Below, one piece after another: positions 2,991-47,700 of a DNA stretch of 64,000 bases. Made by a program: the position numbers and the translations under genes. The notes under the pieces were generated by a model. That model did no database searches and was not told the origin of the DNA. It saw only the letters and a list, made by a program, of their open reading frames with translations. The stretch spans positions 14,694,001-14,758,000 of the forward strand of contig NC_067205.1 of NCBI RefSeq assembly GCF_026262505.1. The letters run 5' to 3'. This DNA is from Trichomonas vaginalis G3 (taxonomy: Eukaryota; Parabasalia; Trichomonadida; Trichomonadidae). Position 1 is the stretch's first letter. Every line of letters starts with the position of its first letter.

Positions 2991-3013
2991 TTATATAAAA
3001 ATAAAATAAATGT

Positions 3014-3092: not shown

Positions 3093-3115
3093 TAAAAATA
3101 AAATTTTAAATTGTA

Positions 3116-15293: not shown

Positions 15294-15400
15294 AGGTAGG
15301 CGGGGCTTCCAGGCGCGTTGCGCCCTCTAGCCCATAAGAAATTTTGCCCAAGACCCAAGAGGAGGACCGAACCCCAGCCGACCAGCCGGTGACAAAACTG
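15294..15400. repeat. Left terminal inverted repeat of Maverick B
   Basis: Contains one inverted copy of the 40-bp core that is repeated in the satellite at the right end (CTAGAGGGCGCAACGCGCC in inverse), followed by an AAATTT step and a GC-rich block with CCAGCCGACCAGCCGG. The reverse complement of 44740-44798 shows the same order (GAGGACGA, GCCAGCCG, TTGAC). The perfect hairpin GGCGC-AAC-GCGCC is a likely protein-binding or cruciform site. Confidence 0.75.
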
Positions 15401-16650
15401 TAATAAACAGAAATTCATCAAAAGTGACAGCTCTCAATTTTTTGACATTTGTAAATTCTAAATTGAATGAGAAAAATGAAATAATACTAAGCATAATACA
15501 ATATTCTAGATTTAATTATAATTAGGAAAAAGTTAGTTTTGAGAGTACTTTTCATAGGCATATAGAATGAAATCTTCTGAAAAATAATATCACACAAACT
15601 CATATTATTTTCTAATATATAACTATTTTATATAAAAATCAAATTCAATGATCTTAAAAGCGAAGGATAAACCTCAAAATTTACGAATATAATGAGTGGG
15701 AATATAATGCTTATCTATCATAAAACCATATGAAATATTAATTTTTGCTTTACGCCTAATTTTTGACGACAATTAGCAAAAATGTTAAATGTGAACACTC
15801 AGTCCATTTGAATATGAAAAATAAAATTGACTTTGATTAAATGTTTTTATTTATCATGCAATTCTTCTTGCGACCAAAGTTTTGAATAAAATTTCAAAAA
15901 ATAAGATAGCTTAAAAAATAATATACGGTAGTGTTTACTAATAGATGAATAGTATATAAATTCTATTAAAATGGATTTGATCCAAAAAAATATATAAAAT
16001 TTGATCATAAATAAAATCGTTTTAAATTACTTCTTCATTTAAATTATAACAATTATTTTTGGTTTTATATTTTTTTGGATCAAATCCATTTTAATAGAAT
16101 TTATATACTATTCATCTATTAGTAAACACTACCGTATATTATTTTTTAAGCTATCTTATTTTTTTGAAATTTTATTCAAAACTTTGGTCGCAAGAAGAAT
16201 TGCATGATAAATAAAAACATTTAATCAAAGTCAATTTTATTTTTCATATTCAAATGGACTGAGTGTTAACATTTAACATTTTTTGCTAATTGTCGTCAAA
16301 AATTAGGCGTAAAGCAAAAATTAATATTTCATATGGTTTTATGATAGATAAGCATTATATTCCCACTCATTATATTCGTAAATTTTGAGGTTTATCCTTC
16401 GCTTTTAAGATCATTAAATTTGATTTTTATATAAAATAGTTATATATTAGAAAATAATATGAGTTTGTGTGATATTATTTTTCAGAAGATTTTGTGTTCT
16501 TCTTCAAAATTTTGTTTTTTATTAAAAAGAATCTTTACAAAATATACATTTACTTTAATTAATATTTAAAAACGTGCTCTATCAAAAGTTCCAAAAATTC
16601 AATATTTTAGCTTTTCTGAGGTGTCACTTTTGATGAATTTCTGTTTACAA
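15401..16650. repeat. Foldback (palindromic) repeat near the left end of Maverick B
   Basis: Two near-perfect inverted arms of about 430 bp (15570-15999 and 16063-16492) flank a 63-bp spacer. A second, outer pair lies at about 15408-15430 and 16621-16645 (AAACAGAAATTCATCAAAAG and its inverse). No coding capacity. It may be a non-autonomous foldback element inserted beside the terminal repeat. The transcript would form a long hairpin. Confidence 0.85.
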
Positions 16651-16803: not shown

Positions 16804-17621
16804 ATGAATTTTACAAAACCACCGTTACCGTTCTTTGGAAATAAGAGTAGATGTAAAGATATTATATTGAGAGAACTTAAGAAACTACCGAATGGTCTAA
16901 CATTTGTAGATTTGTTCGGTGGAAGTTTCTATATATCCCATTTATGTCATACAATATTCCCAGACTCAAAGATTATATGCAATAACTTCGACAACTATAT
17001 GGACCGTCTCAAACATATTCCAGACACAAATAATATATTGAAAGAGTTAAAAGAAAAGATACCTATAGGTAAGATGGAACGTATACCATTAGATAAGAAA
17101 AATATTGTGAGAGAGGTTTTGAAAAAAGCAGAATATATAGACTGGAATAGTATATCTGCTAGACTATTATATAGTGGTGCTATAAGAGTTCATGACATTG
17201 AAACACTTATGTCAAAAGTTTTATATCTTAACTATACAAATGTTTTCAAAGAGGACATAGAAAAATATATTGAGGGTATAGAGTTTGTGAGATGTCATTG
17301 GACAGAGTTGTATGAAAAATATAAAGACAAGGAAAATATTTTCTTTATAGTGGACCCGCCGTTCTATAACACATGGGATTTCAATACCAAGTAGACTGGA
17401 CTTTGAGAGACTCTTTAGAAACTTTAGACGTTATACATAACCATCCATGCTTTTACTTTACATCCGATAAAAGTGGTTTGGAAACCGTTATGAGATGGTT
17501 AGAGGACATACATGACTATGAGTTTATATATGACAAGATAGAATATGAGAGAGGTCCTATAAACTGGAGAAAGTGTCACAATAAAGAAATTTTATTAGTA
17601 AGTAAATGTGGTTTGAAATAG
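16804..17621 (+). pseudogene. D12-class N6-adenine DNA methyltransferase, frameshifted
   Basis: Motifs of the Dam/D12 class appear in order: PPLPFFGNKSR at the N-terminus (AdoMet loop), VDLFGGSFYISH (motif I) and VDPPFYNT (the DPPY-like catalytic motif IV, with Phe). The enzyme would transfer a methyl group from AdoMet to adenine N6. The frame closes just after motif IV at 17394; the C-terminal third continues in another frame from about 17373 to 17621, so one indel near 17385 separates them. Intact length would be about 272 aa, normal for the class. It is the first gene at the left end. Mavericks as a source of adenine methyltransferases in Trichomonas has been proposed in the literature as I recall it. 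Confidence 0.8.
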
Positions 17622-19254: not shown

Positions 19255-20923
19255 ATGTCAAATGAAACAGCGTCTATGAGAGAAATACAACACAACCGAC
19301 AACTCATTATGCAAGCTCTAAATAAGAACACAACAAACTTTTCAAACTATTCTAAGATATCTGAGTCATTGAAAGGGGGTGACTTAAAACTGACATTAAA
19401 CCCTATAACAGATGAGTTTCTCTTTCAAGACAATAAGAACAATACTGTCTGTATAAATCCAACAAAAGGAACTTTAAACGAGAAACCTATAAATGAACTT
19501 CTTTTGAAAGCAGATGTTGACAACAAAGCTGACAAAGAATATGTAGACGATGCAATAGCAAAAGAAGAAGAAAGAGCTAACAATGCTTATGCAACAAAAG
19601 AACATACTCATCCTGAACTAGCAGACAAAACATATGTTGACAATAAAATGTCAAGTGAAGTGACAAGAGCTGAAAACGAATATTCTAAAAAGACTCATAT
19701 ACATTATATTAACCAAATACCAAGTCTTAAGGAAACATTAGAGACAAAAGCAGATAAGACTCATACACATACCATTGCAAATATTACAAACTTACAAGAA
19801 ACCTTAAACAGGAAAAGTGCCGTTGGACATACACATACATCTTCTGAAATAACAGACTTAAACGTTAGCCTTGAAAATAAAGCAGATAAAACATATGTCA
19901 ATGAAATATACCAAAGTTTGATAGGAACAAAAAATATTGAAACTATTGTTGGTGACTTTTCTGTCAATGAAGAAAATAAATATTTTAGATGGCAGTTGGT
20001 ACAGTCCTTAAAAAATGGTACACGGTATAAACTCATTCCGAAAAATAACAATGAAATGTATGTAAGCTATAAAAAGAATGATGGTACACAAGTTAAAGTT
20101 CCATTAGACAACAACTGCTACTTAAACTTATATGGAGACGAACAAAAGAAATATTTAAGAGTTTATGAAATGGTGGATATGATATTACCTGACCCAGCTC
20201 CGGCACCACATTATTATGACTATGGAGATGACGACAGAACACCACATGTAGATGAACAAAAGCTAACATTATATTTAGATTATTATAGATATAAAAGATA
20301 TAATGCAATAGAAAAAACGAGAATAGTATATTATTATACAGATGACAGAAATAAATATTATAGTCAAGACTGTACCTACCCTGAAAACATAAGATTATAT
20401 TATAAAAAATATTCTGACACAAACCAGAAGAAACCTGAAATAGTTGCACTATATTTTAAGTTCAAAAAGACAATCCTATAATATCTCATATGTTTGATTT
20501 AATGAACCCAGTAGGTTCTATTTATACATCTATGGATGCAAGAGGTCCTCAAGTAATGTTTGGTGTTGGTGCATGGGAACAAATAGTCGACAGGTTTTTG
20601 TATTGTGCAAACTCTTCAAAGGAAACAGGTGGAAGTAAAACGATTTCAGGTGAAAATTTACCTGCACACAGTCATTACATAGATTTAAGTACATCTCAAG
20701 CAGGTTGGCATAAGCATAGATATTGGGATTGGTCAGGAATGACAAAAGGTAAAGGATATGATGTTAAAGACGACGTTAAGTTTGCTATAAATTGTTACTG
20801 GGATGACACGCAGGAGAAGGAAACCATACACATTTCGTTTCAGGATATACGCAAACAACGGGACAAAGTAAAGAATACATGCCACCTTACATGACAGTTT
20901 ACGCATGGTATAGAATTGCTTAG
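19255..20923 (+). pseudogene. Phage-type tail-fibre / tail-collar protein, frameshifted
   Basis: N-terminal 408 codons (19255-20481): a shaft of repeats such as LADKTYVDNK, KADKTHTHT and GHTHTSSEITDL, typical of trimeric phage fibres. From 20490 a second frame reads NPVGSIYTSMDARGPQ, FGVGAWEQIVDRFLYC, GGSKTISGENLPAHSH and GWHKHRYWDW, the layout of the phage tail-collar/Gp10 C-terminal domain whose HxH residues bind metal. The expected family end, MPPYMTVYAWYRIA, is found in a third frame and stops at 20921-20923. So the gene is either one fibre with indels near 20480 and 20820 or two adjacent ones. Role: host-surface attachment, by analogy. Its stop overlaps that of the convergent integrase. 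Confidence 0.8.
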
Positions 20924-21825
20924 TCGTCATTTTCAACTTCTTTAGCATATTCGTCAGGAGTTGTCTTATATTTGTTAGGAACTGTCTTTGAAAGTATACC
21001 ACCTTGAACTTTGACAAGTTTGAAACGAGGTCTGACAATAGTAGTTTTATCTTCTGCTTGCAGTGTGTACATTTTGCCATGTTTGCCTAAAACTTCATAA
21101 TATTCTCTTGTATACTTTCTTCTATTTTTACGAACACGAATGTGAGTACCTGTCGAGTTCCCATTGTTTTCATAGTCAATAGTATTTTCATATGGGTCGC
21201 GTTTAGGTATTTCTATTTTTACTTTGTCACCTTTCTGAAGTTTGAAGCCCGGCATTCTTTCTTGTTTGTCTCTTTTGACTAAATTATTAAATATATGGTC
21301 TTTCTCTAAGTCAGGGTTGTTTTTCATTTCTTCAGGGGAGTGGTTTCCCAAACCTTTTTGTTTACGGTTATTGTAAATATTTAAAACTTGTCTCATCTTT
21401 GCCTGGGAGAAGTGTCTATATTTGTCGTCATATGACATTTCATTTGCTTCACCACCTTGTGGTTGGTTTAAGTCTCTTAACATTTTTATACATCCGTCAA
21501 TGACACCAAGAACAGAATGGTTTTGGTCGACAATGAAATATTGGTTTACATTTTTTGAACGCAGATAGTTTTTTACATCATCTGATTTGAAAGAACTTTC
21601 ACAGTCAGATGTCAGTTTTGTTGGATGGTATTTGTCAACGAATATTGTCAAAGCTGCTAAGATATCTAAAATAGCTTTGGACTGTAATGGTATGGCTTCA
21701 CAGTATCTTGTGTTTTGACCAACAAATATTAACCAGTATGGTGGTCCATCTTCTCTATACCTCGGAATGTTTTCCAAGATATCCATAAACCAAGCATTTG
21801 GTGTTGAACTAAAGATTTTTATCAT
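20920..21825 (-). CDS. Maverick B integrase, core and C-terminal domain (301 aa)
   Basis: The catalytic core shows D15 (WFMDILE), D74 (TSDCESSF) and D110 (GVIDGCIKMLRD), with 35 residues between the last two. The third residue is Asp instead of the usual Glu, as in the element A integrase. Residues about 195-275 (LQKGDKVKIEIPK...RPRFKLV) fit the SH3-like C-terminal domain. Compared with the 513-aa enzyme of element A it lacks the long N-terminal region; the frame is open upstream to about 21960 but without a box. An ATG at 21877 in another frame, reading MTNPNKDPMF, suggests that the true start is separated by an indel near 21830. Function may therefore be lost. Confidence 0.75.
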   Translation of the reverse strand: MIKIFSSTPNAWFMDILENIPRYREDGPPYWLIFVGQNTRYCEAIPLQSKAILDILAALTIFVDKYHPTKLTSDCESSFKSDDVKNYLRSKNVNQYFIVDQNHSVLGVIDGCIKMLRDLNQPQGGEANEMSYDDKYRHFSQAKMRQVLNIYNNRKQKGLGNHSPEEMKNNPDLEKDHIFNNLVKRDKQERMPGFKLQKGDKVKIEIPKRDPYENTIDYENNGNSTGTHIRVRKNRRKYTREYYEVLGKHGKMYTLQAEDKTTIVRPRFKLVKVQGGILSKTVPNKYKTTPDEYAKEVENDD

Positions 21826-23109: not shown

Positions 23110-25264
23110 ATGCCCCCATATAGAATGGATAGAAAGTCTGCTAGAATAAAAGCAGAGTTACAAAGATATGGTTGGAGAGTTTCGAAGAAGTTTAAATATA
23201 GGAAGGGAAGACCCATAAAAGTCTATGACAAATTGTCTGGTCTTCGCTACGAAATGGATTTGGAAACAGCACGTGCCAATTATCCAAACAGACTAGAGAG
23301 GTTAGAAGAAGAACGTCTTATGGACATGCCTTTCGATGTTAGTGAACCTCAAGTTGAAGGACACGACGGCTTTGCCAGATTCTACTGGAAACATGACGAA
23401 CAATTGCATCCTTTGAGAAGGAAAAAAAGGAAAAGGTGAAGACGCACATGCTCCCATGGAAAGAACAAGATATGCATATGAAAAGTATCGTGAAGTTAGA
23501 AGTCAAATTACATCTGGTCGAACCTTTACAGTAAACTTTAACGAAGGAAAGAACAAAAAAGGCTTCATGGGAGTACTTGCTGCAATTCAAGACGGAAATA
23601 AGAAAGGACACAATCTCAGATTGACCATAACAGATTTGGATGGTCACATTTACTATGCACATGGCAATGAACAAACAGCCGCAAAACTTCTTGACGCTTT
23701 CAAGACTACAAAGAGAGAACAAATGGTTGACTCCGACTCAGACATTTTGAATGCAATTGAAGGAATTGCAAGTGTCAAGTTCGAATGGTACCAACCTAAC
23801 CCTCAAGCAGTCAGACAACATGCTGGATACTTCCCGTTCATAAATAAGTCTGACATTGACTTGACAAGGTATGGAATTTACAATTCAATTGAAACAATTG
23901 TCAATGAACCTTGTATTCTTACATGTCTAAGGAACTCTGGTCTTGTTACAGATGAGAAGATGAAGTATCTTGAGTCATGTGTGAAGACAAGGTACATTCT
24001 CAGAGGTCAATTGGCAAAAATTGCACCGTTGGCAAATGTCAATATCCGAGTCAACATACCTACAGCTAAAGGTTCTTCACATGACGACTATGTTGTTGAC
24101 AAAGACTTACCATGGTTGAAGATTGTAATTGTCCACAACCACTTCATGTTGAACGAAAGTCTTACAAACCCATTCTTTGGTAAAAGTAAGTGCAACATTG
24201 TCAGAGCTGTAAACATTCTTTTCGAGAAAGGTTTGTTGGAACCAATTCCAGATGACAAGCTGACAGAAACTTTTGTACCAAAAGACGAAACAAACTTTTC
24301 ATTGTTAGCAAGACCAAAAGTTGTTCCAGACAAAGTTCTAGTACAAAAGAAGTACACAGTTCCACAAGGGGTTGGTATGTTCGGATACCAACCTGAACCA
24401 GAAGAACTTCCAATGAGGTTGCAAGAACTTCAAGATGCTATAAACAAACTTCCATTGAGACATCCAATTGACGTCAAATTGTATTGGAGAGCATCTGAGT
24501 TAGGTCAGAAGGTTTTATATGAAACAGGTTGCTTCGACGATGTTTATGAGATAACAGGAGAAGTTTCTCAGAAGATAAGAGACTCACTTGAATTTCCACA
24601 AACTGGACCAATTGGTTGCGACAAGTTCGACTCAGATGAAAAGATATACTATGTCGACCTTAACGCTGCATACATGAGGTTTGTCCAATATATTCCGACT
24701 GGAATTCCAAACGAAGATGGTGAGTTCCCGGGAAGGAACTATACAGTTGGAAAAGTCATACAACAACTGTATGATATTAGGAAAGCTTCAAACCCCAAAC
24801 TTGCAATGACACTCAAATTGCTTATGAATTCGACATGGGGATATTCCATTAAGAAACCTCAAGAGATGAAGAGTAAACATTATGAGAAGGTCGACAACTT
24901 TGTTGAAAGGTTTTCTCCTTTTGTTTTGAAGTACGAATTCACTCAAGGTCAAAGTGGCTTAGTAACCACATTAAAACCTATTGTCGAACATTGGTCTTAC
25001 CCTCAGTTCGCAAAGGCAGTCCTTGACAACTACAACAAATTCTTCTCCGAAGTCAAATCCAAAGTGAAGGTTTACTATGAGAGCATTGACGCACTCATGA
25101 CGAACGAAGAAGGATACAACAAACTCATTGAAATGGGAATGGTCGGTGAAAAGATGGGCTGTTTTAAGCTAGATAAGGTATTTTCCGAAGTTCATGTAAT
25201 ATCGAAAAGGAAATATTGGGGCATACTTGAAGACGGCACAGAAATAAAACATTGCATGAAATAA
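23110..25264 (+). pseudogene. Short family B DNA polymerase of Maverick B, one frameshift
   Basis: A promoter TTTTTTTATTTTTATAAAA stands before ATG 23110 (109 codons); the main frame 23456-25264 (602 codons) has no box, and a seven-A run near 23422-23428 between them is a natural slip site. Polymerase motifs in the 602-codon part: A YYVDLNAAYMRF (D401), B KLLMNSTWGY (454-463), C YYESIDALM (D545), and KxY in SKRKYWG (584-588). Motif C lacks the first Asp of the usual DTDS; the second is kept. No DxE exonuclease motifs are seen. It resembles organellar/viral DNA_pol_B_2-type enzymes rather than the 1150-aa polymerase of element A. Confidence 0.75.
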
Positions 25265-27888: not shown

Positions 27889-28755
27889 TGAATTTTCATG
27901 AATTTCCTTAAGACAGAAAAAATAAAGTTAGTTTTATTTTGAGATATAAAAATTGCTCACATTTGCTCACATTTTGGCACTTTTTTTGTACGTTTGTCAA
28001 AAAATTGTGAGGAAGATCTCACAAAAATAGTCAAAATGTGAGCAAATTTTGAGAAGTGCTCACATTTTGACATACGATTATTTTCATACGTTTTTTTGAT
28101 GAATTCTAATAAAACTTCATTACCACTTTCAGAACGAAGCGTAACTTTTCAGCACGTAACGCTCTATCATGTGTAGTGACATATTATTCAAAAAAACTCA
28201 GATTGCTTATCTTATAATAACAATTTCATTAGAAAAAATGCACGATTTCACGCTAAAACTTTGAAGCAATTCTTAAATTCGGATAAAAAATCGATATGTA
28301 TTACACTTTAAACTTCAAAAAATGGTTCAAAATTTAGACTTAGTTATCTTAACAATATAGCAGATTTTAAGCCGAACAAGTAGGAGTAATAGAAATATCT
28401 CTTGAAAAATAATACAATTAGTAATATGTAAGTCAAAGTTCGAGTATTCTAATAAATAAACGTTCCGGATTTCTTTACTACAAGAATCAATACTTAATAT
28501 ATAGAAGCAACAGTAAAAACTTATTTAGAGATTCAAAAAGAAAGTTGACTAAAGAGAATCTTTTATATAAGTAATTTTATTTTTTGAAATACGAGATCGA
28601 ATAAACATGTATTTTATTTTATTACTATAATAATACGTTTTTACATAGTAAGAAAGTTTAGAGACTGAAATGAAATTAAAAATTGAGAAAAAAATAAAGC
28701 TTTTCTATAAAAATTCATATTAATATATAGTATAATGATATTACAATTTATTGAT

Positions 28756-31000
28756 CAAATAAAAAGAATATTTGTTGAATAATTTCTGTTCAAATTAAAA
28801 GTTCTTCAACTTACGGTAAATCTATCTGCCTTAAAAAGTATTACGATATTATGCAAAGTCAATTTTCTCCAAAAAAATATTTGAAGATGATACTTTAAGT
28901 ATACCAAAAATACAAGAATTTTGAGAGAACTCAATGAATTTTTGTGAAGGTGGAGTTAAATTGAGAAGATTTTTGGTCAGAGAAAAACAAAAATTACTAT
29001 CTGATAAAATGGTATTAAAATGAAAAAAGTTTAAACAAAGGAAATGAAGAATTTATATTATATTAGAATTTAAAGAGTAAATATAAAAGATTGAAAGAAA
29101 GAATAATAATAGGATTCTTGAATGCAACATTTGGAATGATGTTTCCAGTTGTAGATGTGTTAAGCAAAGAGAGATAATGATAGTTTCTTGAGTTTTGAGT
29201 TAAGCTTGTTGTAGATGAGAGAGAAATTTTGACGAGACTGAGGAACTTCATTTGGAATGATGTTTCCAGTTGTAGATGTGTTAAGCAAAGAGAGATAATG
29301 ATAGTTTCTTGAGTTTTTGCAATTAACCATCCTCAATGACTATTGTTTTAATATAATTTTTAAATTTTTTAAAACTGACATTTTAGTTGTATATTTTTTC
29401 TAACAAAGGTACATTCACTAGGCGATAACAGTAAAATGGGATGAAAATATGATAAATAGCATCCCTATATAGTGCCAAACAATATTTATACGGGCCAAAA
29501 AAATTGGCTAGAGATTTGGCGAGTTATAAAACTTAGAAAATTGAGAGGGATTTTTATTTTTGAATTTTTTTTGGAAAGTTAAAATTGCGATTAAAAATCG
29601 ATTTCCAGGAGAACTAAGCATCTCATCATATATTTAAATCGATAAAAATATTAAATAATAGTTGAATAGTATAACAACGTGAAATTATGGCTGAATCTAC
29701 AGAAAAAATGAACATATTTGACATTTTTGAAAATTCATACGTTAGATGGTGACAGACTCATAAACTATACTTTAGCTAAGATTGATATATGGTTTCAACA
29801 ACACATGGTTAAAATTGTAAAAATATTTTAGATTTCAAAAAGATATATATGGTAATATAATGGAACAAAGTCAACAAATAGCATGTTAAATATGTTATAA
29901 TTAACTTTTTATTAGATCCAATAGTAGATATCGAATGGTTTCCAGCTTTATGGTTAAATATTTTCTTTTCGAGCTTCTCTTTAACTGTTGTATTAAGGTT
30001 GTAAATTTTTGATGCTAGAAACTATGGAATCTTCTTTGCTGCTGCATTTTTCTTGAGAGTTCTTGCAATTTCGAATAGATCTGCGCATTGTATGAAATTG
30101 AGGCTTTAAAATATCTTGAAAACAGAATAGGACTGCTTTTCCAAAGGAATGCTTACTTGTAAATCAGAGAGTTTCAAAATTGAGAGCAAGATTATCATCA
30201 TAACTTTCGATTTTGCTGCGAAAAAGGAAGACAAGTAATTAACAAATCATTTACTGTTGTTCATCAAAAAAGAAAACTTTGATAACAACTAATGATGATA
30301 AAATCAAGCTATCTTTTAATATTTTAAATTGATAAGACATTCAAAATATTTGAATGGTTTAAAATATTTTCTTTTAATTTCTATAAGATATTATCATGAT
30401 TATATAATAAAATTTAAATTTTTATTCAAAAAGGCAATATTTCAAACTTTTAATTTCAAAAATCTTAATTCTGCAATAAGTGTATTTAATTGTAGCAAAT
30501 TTAATGATCCTTCGTCATGCTTAGCAATTTGGAACTCATAAATTAATGATTTCTTCAAGTAAAATTCTGCATTATTTCAAAAGTCAATAATTCTCTAGTA
30601 ACTTTTCTTCAAACCCTAACCATTATATTATATGTATAATGGAGAATAATTGCAAAGAAAGATAGCCGAATTTACTGGGTAGTTCTTGTGATGCGAAATA
30701 ATTGCAAATTAACACATAGTTTTAACAGCATCAATCTCTTTTTGCTCTCATTTAAATGCATTCGCACACTTTAATTTTGAAATATAAGAGTTTTGGAAAT
30801 TATCAAATTTATCTGCTCAAATACTATAGATCTTCATAAGTGTTAATAGAATCACCAGCCTTACATATAGTGTTTAATATAATGATGCACATCATACTGG
30901 GATTTATTCCTTATTCATCTAGTTATTATAAGATTTACAACCCCATAAAAATTTAAAATTTTGTCAAAAATAGTGAATGTACCTTTTTTCTAACACAACT
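28756..31000. other. Interior of the MULE, non-coding
   Basis: No ORF above 70 codons with protein-like composition. A 69-bp direct repeat lies at 29128-29196 and 29249-29317 (GGAATGATGTTTCCAGTTGT inside). GGTACATTCACTA at about 29405 recurs inverted at about 30972, next to the right arm, suggesting that the arms once reached further or that the interior was rearranged. Confidence 0.7.
29128..29317. repeat. 69-bp direct repeat inside the MULE
   Basis: Copies 29128-29196 and 29249-29317 are identical by eye and spaced 121 bp start to start. They hold TTGTAGATGTGTTAAGC and TGATAGTTTCTTGAG. No function is apparent. Confidence 0.85.
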
Positions 31001-31861
31001 ATCAATAAATTGTAATATCATTATACTATATATTAATATGAATTTTTATAGAAAAGCTTTATTTTTTTCTCAATTTTTAATTTCATTTCAGTCTCTAAAC
31101 TTTCTTACTATGTAAAAACGTATTATTATAGTAATAAAATAAAATACATGTTTATTCGATCTCGTATTTCAAAAAAATAAAATTACTTATATAAAAAGAT
31201 TCTCTTTAGTCAACTTTCTTTTTGAATCTCTAATAAGTTTTTACTGTTGCTTCTATATATTAAGTATTGATTCTTGTAGTAAAGAAAATCCGGAACGTTT
31301 ATTTATTAGAATACTCGAACTTTGACTTACATATTACTAATTGTAATTATTTTCAAGAGATATTTCTATTACTCCTACTTGTTCGGCTTAAAATCTGCTA
31401 TATTGTTAAGATAAACTAAGTCTAAATTTTGAACCATTTTTTGAAGTTTAAAGTGTAATACATATCGATTTTTTATCCGAATTTAAGAATTGCTTCAAAG
31501 TTTTAGCGTGAAATCGTGCATTTTTTCTAATGAAATTGTTATTATAAGATAAGCAATCTGAGTTTTTTTGAATAATATGTCACTACACATGATAGAGCGT
31601 TACGTGCTGAAAAGTTACGCTTCGTTCTGAAAGTGGTAATGAAGTTTTATTAGAATTCATCAAAAAAACGTATGAAAATAATCGTATGTCAAAATGTGAG
31701 CACTTCTCAAAATTTGCTCACATTTTGACTATTTTTGTGAGATCTTCCTCACAATTTTTTGACAAACGTACAAAAAAGTGCCAAAATGTGAGCAAATGTG
31801 AGCAATTTTTATATCTCTTTTATTTTTATTTATTTTTTTTATTTTGTATGTAAGAACAGTA

Positions 31862-32510: not shown

Positions 32511-32591
32511 TGAATTTTCATGAATTTCCTTAAGATAGAAAAAATAAAGTTAGTTTTATTTTTATTTATTTTTTTATTTTGTATAAAAGAT

Positions 32592-33530
32592 ATGATTTCA
32601 ACAATCGGCACAACAACAATTCAAACAACAGCACCAAACTCGTTAGTCATGAATCCAACATCTATGTTAGTAGAGATGAAAAGCTTCATTCCTTCTTCAT
32701 ATAGTTTTGTAACAGAAATACAAAGAATAAAGCAAGAACTTTTAACAAGTAATTTAGACTGTACCGCACAGGATGAAGAAAATGAAGAATATCTTTATGA
32801 CATGCAGGACATTATTGACCATTTACCCAAATTGCCTGAAATCCAACAACAAAAACTCACTATTCCTGAATTCGATGAAATAGAAGTGAAACCAACCGAC
32901 TCAGTAGAAATAAAGAAGTTCATACGAAAGGTAAATTATGAGTTTCTAGTGTATCATTGCAACCATAAAGTTATGGACAAAGATTGCGACATGGTATATA
33001 AGAACATCTCTGACATATATAAATCGGGGGAGTTTAAGACATACGACAACTTTGTTTCATTAGTTGCAAAATGTGTATGGCAGATAAGAGATAAAGATAG
33101 AAGAGGTAAAGTATGGAATGAACAGATAAAACCAGCAGCCTTTGAGTTAAAGAAAACCATTGACGCCTTGGTTGTTCTAGCTGGTTTTATTTCAATGTAT
33201 AACGCAAAAATGAATCCGCAATGTTCTAAATGTAAAGCAGCAATGAGGAAATATAACTACTCCGTCAAAGAGATAGAACGTATGCGAAACGACTATGCTG
33301 ACTTAAAGAAAGAAGCAGAGAAGCCGGTAGAAAATAAAATGGACATGCTGTCATTTCTGAACAAAAACTATCCAACTGCTGACGATTTCCTATTATCTGA
33401 CGTCAAGAAGAAGTATAAAGAAACCTTCGGCATTGTTAAAACTTTTGATATCCTCAGCGAAGAAATAGAAGCTACAAAACTGTTTAGAATCTCACGAATT
33501 CATAACGTTTACCATGTAAAACGGTTATAA
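32592..33530 (+). CDS. Hypothetical 312-aa protein of the cassette region
   Basis: The start is set at ATG 32592 (MISTIGTTTIQTTAP), directly after the TTTTATTTTTATTTATTTTTTTATTTT-type leader; an in-frame ATG at 32520 lies in the cassette border repeat and is rejected. The protein is mainly helical, with an acidic stretch (EENEEYLYDMQDIIDHL), a CSKCKAAM zinc-knuckle-like motif near residue 220 followed by a coiled coil (VKEIERMRNDYADLKKEAEK), and a short basic end (NVYHVKRL). The end is duplicated downstream at about 33681. No family is recognised. A regulatory role is suggested only by its KilA-N neighbours. Confidence 0.6.
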   Translation: MISTIGTTTIQTTAPNSLVMNPTSMLVEMKSFIPSSYSFVTEIQRIKQELLTSNLDCTAQDEENEEYLYDMQDIIDHLPKLPEIQQQKLTIPEFDEIEVKPTDSVEIKKFIRKVNYEFLVYHCNHKVMDKDCDMVYKNISDIYKSGEFKTYDNFVSLVAKCVWQIRDKDRRGKVWNEQIKPAAFELKKTIDALVVLAGFISMYNAKMNPQCSKCKAAMRKYNYSVKEIERMRNDYADLKKEAEKPVENKMDMLSFLNKNYPTADDFLLSDVKKKYKETFGIVKTFDILSEEIEATKLFRISRIHNVYHVKRL

Positions 33531-33790
33531 ATAATGAGGGTAGAACTGAGGTTAGATATCGGGTTAGATCTAACCATCTACCCTAAAATATATTTTTATT
33601 GAATTCAGCACAAAATTCTGAGTAAAATAATTTTAGGGCATGTGTCAAACCGTTGAGTTTTCACAAAATTCCAAAAACAACGTTTACCATGTAAAACGTT
33701 TATAAAATAACTGGGGTAGAAATGAGGTTAGATATCGGGTTAGATCTAACCATCTACCCTAAAATATATTTTTATTGAATTCAGCACAAA
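33506..33790. repeat. Tandem duplication of gene end plus palindromic repeats d and e
   Basis: The words AACGTTTACCATGTAAAACG and the inverted-orientation palindromic repeat that follows occur twice, about 175 bp apart. Copy d spans 33536-33585 (palindrome 33562-33575), copy e 33713-33761 (palindrome 33738-33751). In both the order is reversed relative to copies a-c. Each is followed by AAAATATATTTTTATTGAA. Confidence 0.85.
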
Positions 33791-33869
33791 AATAATGAAT
33801 TTCATTAGTTAGAAAAATAACGCTAATTTTTTTCTAAGAAAAATTTTTATTTTGTATGTAAAGACAGTA

Positions 33870-34706: not shown

Positions 34707-35570
34707 TTACACAATTTGAACTTTGTTTGCGTAGATATGAATTCTGAAAGAAGTATGAGGGTCTTGTATGACTTTGTACTTCTCCCATAGTTCATGTCTG
34801 TCAAACTTACCTACCATGGACTCTTTCATAAGTTCCATGAAATCGTCTTCGGACAATCCGGGGAAAAGTATTATGTCAGTAAGTATTCTTTTAACATCCT
34901 TACTTAAACTCTTTGCTGTCTGTACACAAATGACAACTGAGATGTTAAAGTGTCTGAGCTTCTTAAGAATTCGACACATATCTTGTTCTCTATTCTTTAA
35001 CAAAGGATGAGAGGCGAAATCATCTAAGATAAGAAGACATCTATGAGGGTAAGTCTTCCAATCGTAAGATTGCAATTTCTTCGAAATGTATTCTATCTCT
35101 TTCTGTTTGTTTCTGAAGTGTTTCTTCTCTAATATTCTCTGCATTTCCTCATTTGGGTCTTTAAACTTAGAATTTATATACTCATTTATAGCATTATACT
35201 TCAAAACTCTTCTTTGGTACTTCTTTATCCAATCTAACAACTCAGTATCCTTTATACATACTAACTTAGACTTCTTTATAATATCTTTGAACGAATTGAC
35301 GGTTTGGTCAAATTGACCAGAAGTCGAACAAATAACAACTAACTCATAGAATGGGTTCTTCTCATCTAGTTCTTGTTGTTGTGCAGCCATTTTAAGATAA
35401 GTGAAAGTCTTACCAGACCCAGGTGGTGCAATTAGACCTGTTATACCATTCTGAGCAAATAAGAACTTGTTATGTATAGGCTTTATCTGAGCATTTTCTA
35501 ACTTCCTCTTGTTCTTATTTAAAACATTCTCAAATTTTTTGTCAATGTCAGCAAACTTTTTTTCTAACAT
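34707..35570 (-). CDS. A32-like genome-packaging ATPase, 287 aa
   Basis: The start is ATG 35568-35570 (MLEKKFADIDKK), because the box TTTTTAATTTTTCTAAAAAT precedes it; the frame is open further upstream but runs into the divergent gene. Walker A is GLIAPPGSGKTFTY, Walker B CLLILDDFASH, followed by a sensor-like VVICVQTAKS strand and a possible arginine finger region. This FtsK/HerA-type ATPase pumps the genome into the capsid in Polintons, virophages and poxvirus-like viruses. The ORF is intact. It is divergent from a 149-aa gene with 36 bp between. Identification is firm at the family level. Confidence 0.85.
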   Translation of the reverse strand: MLEKKFADIDKKFENVLNKNKRKLENAQIKPIHNKFLFAQNGITGLIAPPGSGKTFTYLKMAAQQQELDEKNPFYELVVICSTSGQFDQTVNSFKDIIKKSKLVCIKDTELLDWIKKYQRRVLKYNAINEYINSKFKDPNEEMQRILEKKHFRNKQKEIEYISKKLQSYDWKTYPHRCLLILDDFASHPLLKNREQDMCRILKKLRHFNISVVICVQTAKSLSKDVKRILTDIILFPGLSEDDFMELMKESMVGKFDRHELWEKYKVIQDPHTSFRIHIYANKVQIV

Positions 35571-35606
35571 ATTTTTAGAAAAATTAAAATTTTTATCTTT
35601 TAGAAA
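35571..35606. promoter_or_regulatory. 36-bp divergent promoter
   Basis: Both strands carry the Maverick box close to the start codon: TTTTTATCTTTTAGAAA on the plus strand into ATG 35607, and TTTTTAATTTTTCTAAAAAT on the minus strand into the ATPase. Confidence 0.6.
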
Positions 35607-36056
35607 ATGTCTAGCGATTTCGCTATCTATATTCGAGACAAGCTTTTCGACAGCAAAACATCTGTCGACCATAAAATCTTACATAGTGTAAACAAGAAAG
35701 GTGAATTTGTTCTAAAGTTCTGTTTCTGGGAATATGACAAGAACCATAAAACATTACAAAGAGCAGTCTTAAAATTTGTCAATGACAGACTTGTTGACAG
35801 AGATGACGCCGATTGGAAAGATGAAGTCCAACAAAAGTTCTTAGAATGCAAAGAAGACACATGCGCTGTTCTTGAAGATGAAATAGAAAACAGAATAGAT
35901 AAGCTATTAAAGGACAAAGAACTTTTACATAGATATGGTTCTGAGAAATTTGACATATCTCCACCAGAGAAGAAGAAGAAAGAAAAGAAAGAGAAAAAAG
36001 TTGAAGAGAAGAAAGAACCTGAACCAGTTCCAGAGAAAAAGAAATTTGACATGTAA
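35607..36056 (+). CDS. Hypothetical 149-aa protein with Lys/Glu tail
   Basis: Intact ORF from a boxed ATG. Residues 1-110 form a compact mixed domain (KKGEFVLKFCFWEYDKNHKT, then helices); residues 112-149 are an alternating Lys/Glu/Pro tail (PPEKKKKEKKEKKVEEKK) that is surely disordered. It lies between the ATPase and a 137-aa gene, in the replication/packaging block. No family is recognised. A nucleic-acid- or capsid-binding accessory is possible. Confidence 0.6.
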   Translation: MSSDFAIYIRDKLFDSKTSVDHKILHSVNKKGEFVLKFCFWEYDKNHKTLQRAVLKFVNDRLVDRDDADWKDEVQQKFLECKEDTCAVLEDEIENRIDKLLKDKELLHRYGSEKFDISPPEKKKKEKKEKKVEEKKEPEPVPEKKKFDM

Positions 36057-36522: not shown

Positions 36523-37758
36523 TTACTCAGAAAAAATTTTCTTTGTATATACACCATTCTGAACATCTAAAAGACTTTTGACATTTGCCAAGAATGTACG
36601 TTTAGAAGCTGCCATATAACCATATTCTTGACAATATTGTTTATATTCATCATATAAAGACTTTTCATCTAATGACACAAAGTCAGTTTCATCTATGAAC
36701 AGTTCATATACACTCTTGTTTGCTTCTAACAATGTTTGTCTCTCTTCGGTATGTGAAATTTGTCTTGGATTGAACTTAGAAATATCTAATGTCATGAAAT
36801 ATGAGAACAAGTGGTTGTAAAAGTCAGATGTCAAAGTTTCTGCTAAGTCGTCAAAATATTCTGTATCTTGCATATGAGAATCTGACGTTCTGACAACTAC
36901 ATATCTTCTGTCAGAACTTTCTAACTTCATCGGAACAGCATTGTTTGAAACCATAATGAAGTTTGCAACATTCTCACAAACTCTTTGGTCTTTATACTTT
37001 CTTTCAACAACTCCAACTTTGTCTGTTATAAGACTCTTCAAAGCATCTGAGTTCAAAACTTTTGTTGTATCTATACTTTGAAGTTCATTGCAAACTATAA
37101 GTTTCATATTCTCTATTGAGGAGTTAAACTTGCCACAGATGTTTTCTAAGTTTGTCATATTAGGGTTCGAATAACCTTCTAACAGTTTGCATAAGATATC
37201 TGTAAAGAATGTGTTCTTACCTGTTCCTTGTTTTCCAATTATAATGAGAGCAGTTTCATTTTTAGCACTTGGATGTTGTAAGATATTTGCAAACCAACAT
37301 AAGATATACTCATAAACCTTTTCGTTTCCATTGCATATAATTTCTTTGACATGGTCTAACCAAGCTTCTATAATATTTTCTTTCCATTCTACTTGTTCAT
37401 ATTTATATCCAGTGAAGATAGAATAGAAGTTTGGAGAAGGTGTATAAAACTTTATACCACGAACTGAAAAATCTTCAAGTTTTGACAATAAGATATCCCA
37501 AGCATCTAACATCTTCATGCCAACTTGTACGACTTTTATTTTCTTAAGTTTCTGTCTACATTCTTGTTCAGACACTATTGTTGCTCTTGGTTTGTTAAAG
37601 ACAACATCCCATTCTTTCATGACATAACATTCTGGGGCAGAGTCAACATAAATGACTAAACGTTTCAAATTCTCGACTGCTTTGTTATAGTCTCTAAATG
37701 GACACATATTTCTGAATGCTTGGAAGTCATAAAAATCTGAAACATCTATTCTGTACAT
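36523..37758 (-). CDS. SF3 helicase (D5-like), 411 aa
   Basis: Walker A is LIIIGKQGTGKNTFF at about 173-187, Walker B LIVCNELQSID at about 214-224, motif C NVANFIMVSNN around 259-269, and the arginine finger SSDRRYVVVR follows. These are the SF3 motifs in correct order and spacing. The N-terminal 160 residues lack a primase active site. The C-terminal 60 residues (SLYDEYKQYCQEYGY) resemble the winged-helix tail of D5/phage helicases. A box TTTTTTATTTTTATAAAA precedes the ATG. It unwinds the element's DNA for PolB. The paralog at 2-679 belongs to element A. The ORF is intact. Confidence 0.9.
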   Translation of the reverse strand: MYRIDVSDFYDFQAFRNMCPFRDYNKAVENLKRLVIYVDSAPECYVMKEWDVVFNKPRATIVSEQECRQKLKKIKVVQVGMKMLDAWDILLSKLEDFSVRGIKFYTPSPNFYSIFTGYKYEQVEWKENIIEAWLDHVKEIICNGNEKVYEYILCWFANILQHPSAKNETALIIIGKQGTGKNTFFTDILCKLLEGYSNPNMTNLENICGKFNSSIENMKLIVCNELQSIDTTKVLNSDALKSLITDKVGVVERKYKDQRVCENVANFIMVSNNAVPMKLESSDRRYVVVRTSDSHMQDTEYFDDLAETLTSDFYNHLFSYFMTLDISKFNPRQISHTEERQTLLEANKSVYELFIDETDFVSLDEKSLYDEYKQYCQEYGYMAASKRTFLANVKSLLDVQNGVYTKKIFSE

Positions 37759-42809: not shown

Positions 42810-44522
42810 TCATGTCATTTGATGATATGCTATTAAATCATATCCCTTAGCGAGCTTGTATTTTCCACGTTTGAGATTATATCCGATTTGATGCTGAACC
42901 ATAAAGCTAAATAGTTCGGGTCAGTATTTCCTTCCTTGAACTTTCTAATAGCTTCTTTATATCTGTCACTAAAGTCAAGAGTATCTGGGTAACCATAATC
43001 TTCCTTAAGCATTTTTAAGAATTCTTGGTTTCCTTTTTCTCTACTTCTTTATGTCCTTGCTCTGTTTGTGGTTGTTGTTGTGCAGGGTTTTGAACTGTTG
43101 GTTGGTTGTTGTTGTTGTGCTGGTTTTGAACTGTTGGTTTTGTGTTGGTTGTTGTTGTTGTGCGGATTTTGAACTGTTGGTTGTTTGTGCAGGGTTTTGA
43201 ACTGTTGGTTTTGGTTGTTGTTGTTGTGCTGGATTTTGAACTGTTGGTTGTTGTGTTGGTTTTGGTGCATGCCTGTGTCTGTGTCCATGTGACGATGTAA
43301 ATGTTTTAGGTAGTCCTGGTGCAGGTGCATCTCTTGGAGGGTTTGGTGGTATATAAGTTCCACCCTGGCACATATGTTTCCATCTGCAGCATAATGTCCT
43401 ACCTGACTTTTCGTTTTTAAGAAAGCATTACTAGGTCTGTTTTGGTCTGTTGTAACTCTTTTTTCTTGACTTTCCACAACAGTTGCTCTAACGGCGTCAT
43501 AGGCACTTTGAACTGCCTGTCTCGTTGCTGCATCTGTTATTTTCGTCATATTTTGTGCTACTTCTCTTAACTCTTTGTCGAACCTTCAGACTTCAGTTTC
43601 TTTCCAGATGAGAAGTCGTTCACTAGTTTCACCTTACTATGAAGAGCTTCGAAGGCATTCTTAAAGTCAGCATTCATTAAAGCTTCATTTGAACTGTCTT
43701 CATCCGCTTGTATTTTTGTCCTTATTGACCCTATAAGTTGGGCTGCTTTAGCGTTGGCTTGGGCATCTAACCAGTCATTATTAGCTTTTTATATTCTGCG
43801 CTTTTCATTGCCTTTTGCATGGCTGCGTCGTTATTTTTACTTTCTTGTGCTAAGTTTTCATACTGTACGGTTTGGTTTTGCAACTGTAAAAGTTTTTCTG
43901 CCTTTACATTTGCTTCAACTTCTTTTTTATACTCATCGCTATCCATATATGTCTTCATGGCTTTTTGTTTTATCTCTTCATCTTTCAGTACTTTATATTG
44001 AGTAGTATGGTTTTTCAAATTTATAACATCTTGTTCCATTTTTGCTACTTCTGCTGCTTTTTCTGACACTTTTTTCGCATATTCCTCTGTACTTAGTTCT
44101 TTCAGTTGTTCTTCTTTCTTCTTTTTCTCTACGTTTAACTCATTGAGTTTCTTTGTGTGTCTGTCATATTCTAGTTTCTTTTCGTTTTCACTTATTTGTT
44201 TCTGTATGTCTATGTTTGACTTTTTGACATCTGTTATTTGATTTTTGAGTGAACTCAAATTCATTTGACTTTGAGGGTTATAAGCTGTTCCGTCTGCAGC
44301 TCCACCATAGCCTGCCATTTTCGCTAAAAGTGCCGCTCTTAAACCTCCACTCTGTGCACCAATAACTCGGTTTAAAAGCATAGGGTTGCTTGACATTTGT
44401 TGCAACATAGTGGGGTCATTCATCATTTGTTGTTGCAACTGTTGTTGTGGTGTCAGTTTTACTATTGGATGTTTCAATGCTCCCTTCCTCTTACGTATAT
44501 TCTTACGTAGCTTACGTGGCAT
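42810..44522 (-). pseudogene. Large virion-protein candidate 2 (coiled coil plus PTVQNPAQ repeats), frameshifted
   Basis: ATG 44520-44522 (MPRKLRKNIRKRKGALK) follows CGTTTTTTACTTCACTTAAA. The first 250 codons are intact: a basic start, then a long coiled coil (about 100-245). After a frameshift near 43790 the coil goes on to NMTKITDAATRQAVQSAYDA, then a HRHRH patch and a low-complexity part built of PTVQNPAQQQQ repeats in shifting frames (43041-43260), and finally an end reading KGYDLIAYHQMT that stops at 42810-42812. Total about 571 codons. A scaffold or tail-like role is possible. It is the last gene before the right end. Confidence 0.55.
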
Positions 44523-44798
44523 TTTAAGTGAAGTAAAAAACGGTTTTTGACAGATGTTTATATGACACTTTTTGTTCAGCACAAAAAACTACTCGGTCAA
44601 AGTGTTGTCAGTTTTGTAAAATAACCGTCCGATCTCATTCTATAAGGGGAAAAGGCTTCTCAAAGTATACTTCCTTGGAACGCCTGTAACTTTTCCTGTA
44701 GCGACGAGAGACCATTACTTGTCCGGACAAAGTTATACTATTTCGAGTGCTCTACAAAAAAGTCAACGGCTGGCTCGTCCTCAGAAATTTTTTATGGG
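44523..44798. other. Right subterminal region of Maverick B
   Basis: No gene. GGCTGGCTCGTCCTCAG (about 44768-44785) mirrors the GC-rich block of the left terminal repeat. The stretch is richer in GC than most of the element. Confidence 0.6.
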
Positions 44799-47700
44799 CT
44801 AGAGGGCGCAACGCGCCTGGAAGCCCTCCGAATAAAAACTTCATTTATACTAAACATCTTCGGGGCTAGAGGGCGCAACGCGCCTGGAAGCCCTCCGAAT
44901 AAAAACTTCATTTATACTAAACATCTTCGGGGCTAGAGGGCGCAACGCGCCTGGAAGCCCTCCGAATAAAAACTTCATTTATACTAAACATCTTCGGGGC
45001 TAGAGGGCGCAACGCGCCTGGAAGCCCTCCGAATAAAAACTTCATTTATACTAAACATCTTCGGGGCTAGAGGGCGCAACGCGCCTGGAAGCCCTCCGAA
45101 TAAAAACTTCATTTATACTAAACATCTTCGGGGCTAGAGGGCGCAACGCGCCTGGAAGCCCTCCGAATAAAAACTTCATTTATACTAAACATCTTCGGGG
45201 CTAGAGGGCGCAACGCGCCTGGAAGCCCTCCGAATAAAAACTTCATTTATACTAAACATCTTCGGGGCTAGAGGGCGCAACGCGCCTGGAAGCCCTCCGA
45301 ATAAAAACTTCATTTATACTAAACATCTTCGGGGCTAGAGGGCGCAACGCGCCTGGAAGCCCTCCGAATAAAAACTTCATTTATACTAAACATCTTCGGG
45401 GCTAGAGGGCGCAACGCGCCTGGAAGCCCTCCGAATAAAAACTTCATTTATACTAAACATCTTCGGGCTAGAGGGCGCAACGCGCCTGGAAGCCCTCCGA
45501 ATAAAAACTTCATTTATACTAAACATCTTCGGGGCTAGAGGGCGCAACGCGCCTGGAAGCCCTCCGAATAAAAACTTCATTTATACTAAACATCTTCGGG
45601 CTAGAGGGCGCAACGCGCCTGGAAGCCCTCCGAATAAAAACTTCATTTATACTAAACATCTTCGGGGCTAGAGGGCGCAACGCGCCTGGAAGCCCTCCGA
45701 ATAAAAACTTCATTTATACTAAACATCTTCGGGGCTAGAGGGCGCAACGCGCCTGGAAGCCCTCCGAATAAAAACTTCATTTATACTAAACATCTTCGGG
45801 GCTAGAGGGCGCAACGCGCCTGGAAGCCCTCCGAATAAAAACTTCATTTATACTAAACATCTTCGGGGCTAGAGGGCGCAACGCGCCTGGAAGCCCTCCG
45901 AATAAAAACTTCATTTATACTAAACATCTTCGGGGCTAGAGGGCGCAACGCGCCTGGAAGCCCTCCGAATAAAAACTTCATTTATACTAAACATCTTCGG
46001 GGCTAGAGGGCGCAACGCGCCTGGAAGCCCTCCGAATAAAAACTTCATTTATACTAAACATCTTCGGGGCTAGAGGGCGCAACGCGCCTGGAAGCCCCCG
46101 AATAAAAACTTCATTTATACTAAACATCTTCGGGGCTAGAGGGCGCAACGCGCCTGGAAGCCCTCCGAATAAAAACTTCATTTATACTAAACATCTTCGG
46201 GGCTAGAGGGCGCAACGCGCCTGGAAGCCCTCCGAATAAAAACTTCATTTATACTAAACATCTTCGGGGCTAGAGGGCGCAACGCGCCTGGAAGCCCTCC
46301 GAATAAAAACTTCATTTATACTAAACATCTTCGGGGCTAGAGGGCGCAACGCGCCTGGAAGCCCTCCGAATAAAAACTTCATTTATACTAAACATCTTCG
46401 GGGCTAGAGGGCGCAACGCGCCTGGAAGCCCTCCGAATAAAAACTTCATTTATACTAAACATCTTCGGGGCTAGAGGGCGCAACGCGCCTGGAAGCCCTC
46501 CGAATAAAAACTTCATTTATACTAAACATCTTCGGGGCTAGAGGGCGCAACGCGCCTGGAAGCCCTCCGAATAAAAACTTCATTTATACTAAACATCTTC
46601 GGGGCTAGAGGGCGCAACGCGCCTGGAAGCCCTCCGAATAAAAACTTCATTTATACTAAACATCTTCGGGGCTAGAGGGCGCAACGCGCCTGGAAGCCCT
46701 CCGAATAAAAACTTCATTTATACTAAACATCTTCGGGGCTAGAGGGCGCAACGCGCCTGGAAGCCCTCCGAATAAAACTTCATTTATACTAAACATCTTC
46801 GGGGCTAGAGGGCGCAACGCGCCTGGAAGCCCTCCGAATAAAACTTCATTTATACTAAACATCTTCGGGGCTAGAGGGCGCAACGCGCCTGGAAGCCCTC
46901 CGAATAAAAACTTCATTTATACTAAACATCTTCGGGGCTAGAGGGCGCAACGCGCCTGGAAGCCCTCCGAATAAAAACTTCATTTATACTAAACATCTTC
47001 GGGGCTAGAGGGCGCAACGCGCCTGGAAGCCCTCCGAATAAAAACTTCATTTATACTAAACATCTTCGGGCTAGAGGGCGCAACGCGCCTGGAAGCCCTC
47101 CGAATAAAACTTCATTTATACTAAACATCTTCGGGGCTAGAGGCGCAACGCGCCTGGAAGCCCTCCGAATAAAAACTTCATTTATACTAAACATCTTCGG
47201 GGCTAGAGGGCGCAACGCGCCTGGAAGCCCTCCGAATAAAAACTTCATTTATACTAAACATCTTCGGGGCTAGAGGGCGCAACGCGCCTGGAAGCCCTCC
47301 GAATAAAAACTTCATTTATACTAAACATCTTCGGGGCTAGAGGGCGCAACGCGCCTGGAAGCCCTCCGAATAAAAACTTCATTTATACTAAACATCTTCG
47401 GGGCTAGAGGGCGCAACGCGCCTGGAAGCCCTCCGAATAAAAACTTCATTTATACTAAACATCTTCGGGGCTAGAGGGCGCAACGCGCCTGGAAGCCCTC
47501 CGAATAAAAACTTCATTTATACTAAACATCTTCGGGGCTAGAGGGCGCAACGCGCCTGGAAGCCCTCCGAATAAAAACTTCATTTATACTAAACATCTTC
47601 GGGGCTAGAGGGCGCAACGCGCCTGGAAGCCCTCCGAATAAAAACTTCATTTATACTAAACATCTTCGGGGCTAGAGGGCGCAACGCGCCTGGAAGCCCT

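What the first reader, a model, noticed from the sequence alone, without database searches (positions are those of the whole stretch)
19255..20923. Phage-type tail fibre and collar domain in a eukaryotic Maverick
GHTHTSSEI shaft repeats, a GSIYxS...WExIxDRFL segment, NLPAHSH, HKHR and an MPPY...VYAWYRIA end are in the order seen in phage fibre/collar proteins. A receptor-binding fibre implies particles that attach to cells, supporting the view that this Maverick is (or was) a virus with an extracellular stage, and shows gene flow from phages, perhaps from vaginal or gut bacteria sharing the protist's niche.
Basis: partly seen in the sequence, partly recalled or inferred. Interest (0 to 1): 0.85.

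Follow-up and report, generated by a model that had tools for sequence, protein, structure and literature searches.

The report
Broken virus fibre gene in Trichomonas
This stretch is a broken copy of a virus attachment-fibre gene carried by a virus-like element that is very common in the genome of the human parasite Trichomonas vaginalis; better kept copies elsewhere in the same genome mix and match their outer tips between different element families, much as bacterial viruses do with their fibres.

Summary
ORF 19255-20481 carries the Pfam phage-tail repeat (PTR, 1.8e-31) and ORF 20490-20894 an incomplete Gp10 C-terminal domain (1.1e-14); the MPPY...YAWYRIA end is in a third frame, so this copy is broken. 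It is not contamination: the 150 copies scored include all six large contigs, and all 120 listed protein hits are Trichomonas vaginalis G3. The fibre belongs to a Maverick: in 6 of 7 close pairs the capsid gene (DUF4106) lies 18-20 kb downstream on the opposite strand, and the window keeps a capsid remnant near the matching place. A PTR fibre in these elements is already in print (PMC12220804), and public annotation already says 'tail fiber'. Added here: three dissimilar N-terminal anchors share one C-terminal tip domain; tips and middle modules are recombined between anchor types (up to 94% DNA identity where the anchors have no DNA match); type B fibres are under purifying selection (omega 0.29), type A tips not clearly. 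The phage link is homology: 22-39% identity over most of the domain in listed rows, and one Trichomonas clade on a long stem, which speaks for one old acquisition rather than recent uptake from vaginal bacteria. An extracellular stage is supported, not shown.

The parts
19255..20481 (+). first part of the broken fibre gene: type A N-terminal anchor, coiled shaft and PTR repeat, then the A3 middle module
   Evidence: PF12789 1.8e-31; 92% DNA identity to L033 over the first 584 nt, 93% to L045 from nt 508 to nt 1422 of the window gene
19678..19857 (+). PTR phage tail repeat, residues 142-201
20490..20894 (+). second part: Gp10_C tip domain (GSIYTS...WEQIVDRFL, NLPAHSH, HKHR), tip-1 allele, incomplete
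   Evidence: PF21939 1.1e-14; 90% DNA identity to the L033 tip over 410 nt
20879..20923 (+). last 14 codons of the tip (MPPYMTVYAWYRIA) and stop, in a third frame
20920..21825 (-). retroviral-type integrase (rve), convergent with the fibre
   Evidence: PF00665 2e-07, 31.6 bits, one bit under the cut-off of 32.6; same order in L033
18563..19236 (-). DUF7777 gene, broken into two ORFs
   Evidence: PF24992 3e-53 and, under the cut-off, 3.2e-05; one ORF of 279 aa in L033
16804..17621 (+). upstream gene, broken into two ORFs (one ORF of 272 aa in L033); Dam-type DNA methylase by its DPPF motif, recalled
   Evidence: no Pfam match (16804-17391; L033)
34707..35672 (-). A32-type packaging ATPase; assigned to this element by position only
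   Evidence: PF04665 27.6 bits, cut-off 22.8
36523..37758 (-). D5/VapE-type helicase gene (DUF5906); assigned to this element by position only
   Evidence: PF19263 3.2e-24
43041..43549 (-). remnant of the major capsid protein gene (DUF4106), in two frames
   Evidence: PF13388 1.5e-28 and 1.3e-22
27941..31817 (.). 3.9 kb stretch bounded by long inverted repeats, probably a later insertion (inferred)
   Evidence: arms I1, I3, I4, I11, I14, I15
15303..15344 (+). candidate left terminal inverted repeat (42 nt)
   Evidence: 98% complementary to 44785-44826
44785..44826 (-). candidate right terminal inverted repeat; runs into a 67-nt minisatellite

Best explanation
The stretch is a dead copy of the attachment-fibre gene of a Trichomonas vaginalis Maverick virus. 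Better kept copies encode a modular fibre: an N-terminal anchor specific to the element family (inferred to sit on the capsid vertex), a shaft of coiled and PTR repeats of variable length, a middle module, and a C-terminal Gp10_C tip with HxH clusters around a variable loop. It most likely works like a phage tail fibre, as a trimer whose tip binds the surface of a trichomonad cell. Recombination swaps middle modules and tips between element families. Shown: domains, open frames, co-location with the capsid gene in type A, module swapping, purifying selection in type B. Inferred: trimer, capsid attachment, receptor binding, extracellular particles.
For: PTR and Gp10_C matches in the window and in relatives. 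Fibre and capsid: 7 PTR-capsid pairs within 30 kb, 6 of them at +18.2 to +20.3 kb on the opposite strand. The window's capsid remnant lies about 23 kb downstream of its PTR, about 19.5 kb if the 3.9 kb inverted-repeat stretch is left out. Three anchor types end in one tip domain. Swapping: A_L036 and C_L032 share 92.5% DNA identity over their last 708 nt, with no other blastn match at 1e-5; C_L023 and B_L021 share 91% over the last 429 nt only. Synonymous third positions: L019-L020 fibre 852 of 895 identical, integrase 133 of 244. Tip-3 is a discrete allele: 17 full-length matches of 93-100% identity and two partial ones of 90-92%, the remaining rows at 61% or less. All four combinations of middle A3/X with tip-1/tip-3 were seen. 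Codon-bootstrap omega: four type B fibres 0.29 (0.23-0.36), six type B tips 0.23 (0.14-0.39).
Against: There is no particle, protein or binding evidence. Type A, the window's own type: tip omega 0.61 (0.40-1.08), not clearly below 1. The Gp10_C hit list shows no excess of capsid genes nearby (0, 1, 3 pairs within 10, 20, 30 kb; 1.5, 3.1, 4.8 expected), and no capsid gene was identified beside type B or C fibres. The closest solved relative, T4 gp10, is a baseplate protein, not itself a receptor binder (recalled), so the tip might only trimerise. The A3 + tip-1 class rests on the window copy alone (0 of 120 public tip-1 proteins have A3). The structure model was unusable (mean pLDDT 38). Of 27 loci, 9 have no ORF from anchor to tip.
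Confidence: 0.75

Rival explanations
1. The fibre is a passenger in elements that now spread only inside the nucleus. Mosaic tips come from ectopic gene conversion among many genomic copies, not from viruses meeting in a cell, and the protein has no present attachment role.
For: Thousands of first-look candidates (4413; 5618); many broken copies, the window among them; type A tip omega not clearly below 1.
Against: Type B fibres have omega 0.23-0.29 across lineages. In L019-L020 the fibre is near identical while the integrase beside it has diverged. In type A the capsid gene keeps its place. Conversion in the genome and recombination in an infected cell cannot be told apart with these data.
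Confidence: 0.17
2. The C-terminal Gp10_C part is only a trimerisation and capping domain; specificity lies in the middle modules. (Compatible in part with the best explanation, so the odds overlap.)
For: Closest solved relative is the T4 gp10 C-terminal domain; middle modules also vary and swap.
Against: The tip has a variable loop between conserved ends, with at least three alleles seen.
Confidence: 0.25
3. The gene is a host adhesin derived from a Maverick and used by the parasite.
For: None direct; the parasite lives by adhesion (recalled).
Against: Integrase genes stand beside type A and type B fibres, and in type A the capsid gene at a set distance; copies are numerous and often decayed.
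Confidence: 0.03
4. Bacterial or phage contamination of the assembly.
For: Phage-like domains.
Against: The 150 scored copies include all six large contigs; the 120 listed proteins are annotated in T. vaginalis G3; composition is like the neighbourhood (33% GC); no close relative was seen in the phage set.
Confidence: 0.005

Closest known systems
PTR fibres of T. vaginalis Polinton-like viruses (PMC12220804, section 13 part 1 read)
   Same: same organism, same PF12789 repeats, same proposed role in attachment
   Different: that paper reports a collagen-like domain fused to up to seven PTR in 20 elements, and its main text does not hold the term Gp10; no collagen domain was matched in the five fibre ORFs scanned here (L033, L021, L023 and, lacking their anchor in frame, L045 and L024), and each ends in Gp10_C
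Public T. vaginalis G3 annotation 'Baseplate structural protein' / 'tail fiber protein, putative' / 'phage tail repeat-like family'
   Same: the same genes: P0001 is letter for letter the L033 protein
   Different: names only; no element context, module exchange or selection
Antireceptors of Lactobacillus delbrueckii phages (Ld3, c5, LL-Ku)
   Same: C-terminal Gp10_C domain (Ld3; c5 and LL-Ku), 32-35% identity over tip-1
   Different: Ld3 has a prophage-tail domain N-terminally and no PTR match; phage LL-H, whose antireceptor has host-range mutants (PMC3870949, passages), lacks Gp10_C and so lends no support
T4 gp10 C-terminal domain (2fkk, 5hx2)
   Same: a Trichomonas-only profile matches 2fkk end to end, 8.8e-06
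   Different: a baseplate wedge protein, not a fibre tip (recalled)
Fibres of other Polinton-like viruses (PMC12220804)
   Same: modular, phage-like, in small eukaryotic DNA viruses
   Different: according to that paper they often end in Peptidase_S74 chaperone domains, though not in parabasalids

Membership tests
PF12789 phage tail repeat (PTR) | profile score over the curated cut-off | tested here: met
   108.4 bits against 27; 185.4 in L033
PF21939 Gp10 C-terminal domain | profile score over cut-off, full length | tested here: met
   over the cut-off; the window matches positions 1-109 of 139 only; L033, L021, L024, L023 match 1-139 and L045 2-139
PF07484 tail collar | profile match | tested here: not met
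   no match at E<=0.1 in the window ORFs or in five fibre ORFs
Maverick/Polinton | retroviral-type integrase | tested here: met
   rve 2e-07 in the window, one bit under the cut-off; 32.1 bits, also under it, in L033; 40.1 bits, over it, in L021
Maverick/Polinton | major capsid protein gene | tested here: met
   DUF4106 remnant only; DUF4106 is named as the T. vaginalis capsid protein in PMC10120064 (passages); the fold was not tested here
Maverick/Polinton | A32-type ATPase | tested here: met
   27.6 bits against 22.8; placed in the element by position only
Maverick/Polinton | protein-primed DNA polymerase B | tested here: inconclusive
   ORFs at 23456-25264 and 3119-6568 look like it by eye; no Pfam polymerase match
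Maverick/Polinton | terminal inverted repeats | tested here: inconclusive
   42-nt arms 29.4 kb apart, but they include a minisatellite unit
Functional receptor-binding fibre | trimer, particle association, binding | not testable with these tools
   monomer model unusable

The most novel reading that the evidence does not exclude
Three families of Maverick viruses living in one protist genome trade receptor-binding tips and middle modules, so different Mavericks have repeatedly met in the same cell as active viruses. Tip choice is then under selection by trichomonad surface receptors: a phage-like arms race frozen in a eukaryotic genome.
Probability: 0.4. Interest if true: 0.8.

Novelty: new variant of a known kind. 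Interest (0 to 1): 0.58.

Why it matters
Mavericks make up about a third of the T. vaginalis genome, and the lack of capsid genes there long supported the view that they are transposons (PMC10120064, passages). A selected fibre with exchangeable tips, standing at a fixed place beside the capsid gene in one family, is hard to explain without particles that meet cells. It also gives concrete proteins (tip alleles, anchors) with which an extracellular stage can be tested.

Tried and rejected
Structure: AlphaFold on a public fibre protein (P0001) with 31 sequences gave mean pLDDT 38, so no fold search was run. Relatives in viral contigs: of 14 stretches matching patterns from the tip alignment, one encoded a relative (L046); a type B tip (5 stretches) and a window polymerase-like ORF (3 stretches) gave none; genome contigs gave none of 22. 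Eukaryotic viruses outside Trichomonas were therefore not surveyed, and the tree has no row known to come from one. The LL-H host-range mutants were considered as functional support and dropped, because its Gp71 has no Gp10_C. The type C middle region of L022 and L024 had no Pfam or PDB match better than E 0.07 outside the tip; L023 has a sub-threshold DUF4795 match (6.8e-05) in its coiled part. Gp10_C hits against capsid hits showed no excess; the spacing result comes from the PTR list only, and the single Gp10_C pair within 20 kb is the L033 locus again.

Rows dropped: the spacing test used 122 of the 163 PTR matches (one per array, listed rows, large contigs), 146 of 150 Gp10_C matches (large contigs) and 97 capsid places from 102 matches. 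Selection tests left out L042 (frame lost near its end); one search also left out L037, whose DNA is identical to L035; L045 was left out of the type A tip set, and L038, L041 and L045 out of the anchor set. With all six type B fibres, dissimilar anchors included, the ratio was 0.51. The tree used 31 of 120 proteins (75% similarity filter, at least 110 residues) and 6 of 8 other loci; L049 and L051 gave no profile match. Its bootstrap had not settled. The shaft-unit count used a strict pattern that found none in 18 of 79 proteins, so it is a lower bound.

Novelty in print was checked by searches of the open PMC library only; of the papers listed I read only what is cited here (PMC12220804: passages and section 13 part 1; PMC10120064 and PMC3870949: passages).

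Full report
What is there. The window lies in a 180.9 Mb, 86-contig genome. The protein search names the organism as Trichomonas vaginalis G3: all 120 listed hits of an intact relative carry that name. At 19255-20923 there are two ORFs in different frames and a third-frame end. The first has a full PTR match, the second an incomplete Gp10_C match, and both match phage tail families in PHROGs. This copy is broken: a stop ends the first part, the second part is in another frame, and its last 14 codons are in a third. Neighbours are broken too: DUF7777 is in two ORFs, the methylase-like gene in two, and the capsid gene survives as DUF4106 fragments.

Relatives. L033 has the same gene order with open frames: upstream gene 272 aa, DUF7777 279 aa, fibre 443 aa, integrase 319 aa. 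Of 27 loci fetched around PTR or Gp10_C hits (L019-L045), 18 have one ORF from a typed anchor to the tip: 10 type A, 6 type B, 2 type C; two of the type A loci have identical fibre DNA. Type A has REIQHN near its start and is the window type. Type B is 955-999 aa with an integrase just downstream. Type C starts MIKQQQ. A and B anchors have no BLAST match; A and C match only in a coiled stretch (best E 1.6e-04); the two kinds of type B anchor are 31% identical over 121 residues. The tips share conserved ends and a variable middle.

Number of copies. The genome search scored 150 of 4413 first-look candidates for Gp10_C, and all 150 are over the cut-off; for PTR it scored 150 of 5618 candidates, giving 163 matches. 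Counts are lower bounds, and the scored set favours well-kept copies.

The fibre is part of the Maverick. DUF4106 is the T. vaginalis capsid protein according to PMC10120064 (passages). Of 7 PTR-capsid pairs within 30 kb, 6 have the capsid gene 18.2-20.3 kb downstream on the opposite strand; the seventh is 5.3 kb upstream. The number of pairs is only modestly above chance (7 observed, 3.8 expected); the fixed place and orientation are what tell. In the window, the DUF4106 remnant at 43041-43549 is about 23 kb from the PTR, or about 19.5 kb if the 3.9 kb inverted-repeat stretch at 27941-31817 is a later insertion, as I infer. The Gp10_C list shows no excess of capsid genes, so the link is shown for type A only.

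Modules are swapped. Type C L032 and type A L036 share 92.5% DNA identity over their last 708 nt and no other blastn match; L032 and L033 share 94.2% over 668 nt. Type C L023 and type B L021 share 91% over the last 429 nt only. Among 120 public proteins with tip-1, 79 carry the type A anchor and 12 the type C anchor by a strict pattern, 29 being truncated or other; a looser pattern gives 83, 14 and 23. Within type B, the first 600 alignment columns of L025 and L031 are 38-53% identical in DNA to the other four, yet columns 700-900 are 85-98% identical, and their integrases are 91-99% identical to those of L020, L021 and L026. L019 is 93-100% identical to L020 and L026 in the ten inner of twelve fibre windows (75-91% in the two end windows) but 65-77% in the integrase. 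On synonymous third positions L019-L020 share 852 of 895 in the fibre but 133 of 244 in the integrase. Tip-3 is a discrete allele among the 150 rows scored: 17 full-length matches of 93-100%, two partial ones of 90-92%, the others at 61% or less. It occurs with middle module A3 in 8 of 12 loci examined (one of them the L045 locus again) and with module X in 2; in 2 no middle was seen. A type A anchor was seen in 8 of the 12. With tip-1 + X (L033 and others) and tip-1 + A3 (the window) all four combinations exist, which needs recombination or conversion. The last class rests on the window copy alone: 0 of 120 public tip-1 proteins carry A3.

Selection. With a codon bootstrap, omega is 0.29 (0.23-0.36) for four type B fibres with alike anchors, 0.23 (0.14-0.39) for six type B tips, 0.07 (0.04-0.14) for six and 0.15 (0.10-0.25) for five type B integrases. 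For type A it is 0.44 (0.23-0.85) in the anchor and 0.61 (0.40-1.08) in the tip. So type B fibres have been kept by selection in replicating lineages, less strictly than the integrase. For the type A tip, the window's own type, neutrality is not excluded. Only open copies were used, which may lower the values.

Where it came from. By tblastn 610, 370 and 20 of 50,697 phage records match tips 1, 2 and 3. In the listed rows identity over most of the domain is 22-39%; higher values are short pieces, up to 53% over a third of the tip and 69% over 26 residues (one of 5 records counted at 60-80%; the other four were not listed). For the conserved first 50 residues of a type B tip, the 14 best-ranked rows are 13 from Lactobacillus delbrueckii phages and one faecal phage, at 49-54%. 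Ten Trichomonas tips form one clade (99/100) on a stem of 2.3 changes per column among 37 other rows from phages and metagenomes, in which Ld3 is not their sister. Within the clade, type C tips fall in two places, one beside type A and one inside type B. That fits one old acquisition followed by exchange inside Trichomonas. No known eukaryotic virus was in the sample, so the donor may have been another eukaryotic virus rather than a phage. Ld3 carries Gp10_C, but the functional data in PMC3870949 (passages) are on phage LL-H, whose Gp71 lacks it.

Structure. A Trichomonas-only tip profile matches the T4 gp10 C-terminal domain over its whole length (8.8e-06); a profile with phage tips added gives 2.2e-13. 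The T4 long tail fibre protein gp37 appears at 0.014 over the HxH part, which is weak. Single sequences from the window found nothing of the kind in solved structures. The model of an intact fibre was unusable.

What is known. PMC12220804 (section 13 part 1 read) reports PTR repeats fused to a collagen-like domain in 20 T. vaginalis elements and proposes attachment. Its main text does not hold the term Gp10. Public annotation already names these proteins as tail fibre or baseplate proteins. I saw no paper on tip exchange in these elements in searches of the open library, which misses most subscription journals.

Verdict. The added interest lies in the better kept copies: exchange of tips and middle modules between element families, and selection on the fibre in type B. 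Together they make a cell-meeting stage, present or recent, likely, but do not show it.

Noticed in passing
27941-31817: A 3.9 kb stretch with inverted arms of roughly 860 bp (pieces 92-100% complementary) and no ORF over 70 aa among those lying wholly inside, apparently inserted in the Maverick.
   Followed up: partly
15570-16492: A second large inverted repeat (arms about 430 bp, pieces 96-100% complementary) near the left end of the element.
   Followed up: no
44796-49507: About 70 copies of a 67-nt minisatellite whose unit is also part of the candidate inverted-repeat end of the Maverick (near 15303 on the other side); the array may have grown from the element end.
   Followed up: partly
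L022, L023, L024 (type C fibres): Between anchor and tip, a module of about 300 aa with repeated S.DG..W-like motifs, propeller-like by eye; no profile match in L022 or L024 outside the tip.
   Followed up: partly
window 32520-34676: A KilA-N gene and its neighbour look alike to genes beside type B fibres (L020, L021), so gene blocks may also move between element families.
   Followed up: no
window 1449-6568: A second Maverick-like element with a 1150 aa polymerase-like ORF and a 513 aa ORF; similar ORFs lie beside the fibre in L024.
   Followed up: no
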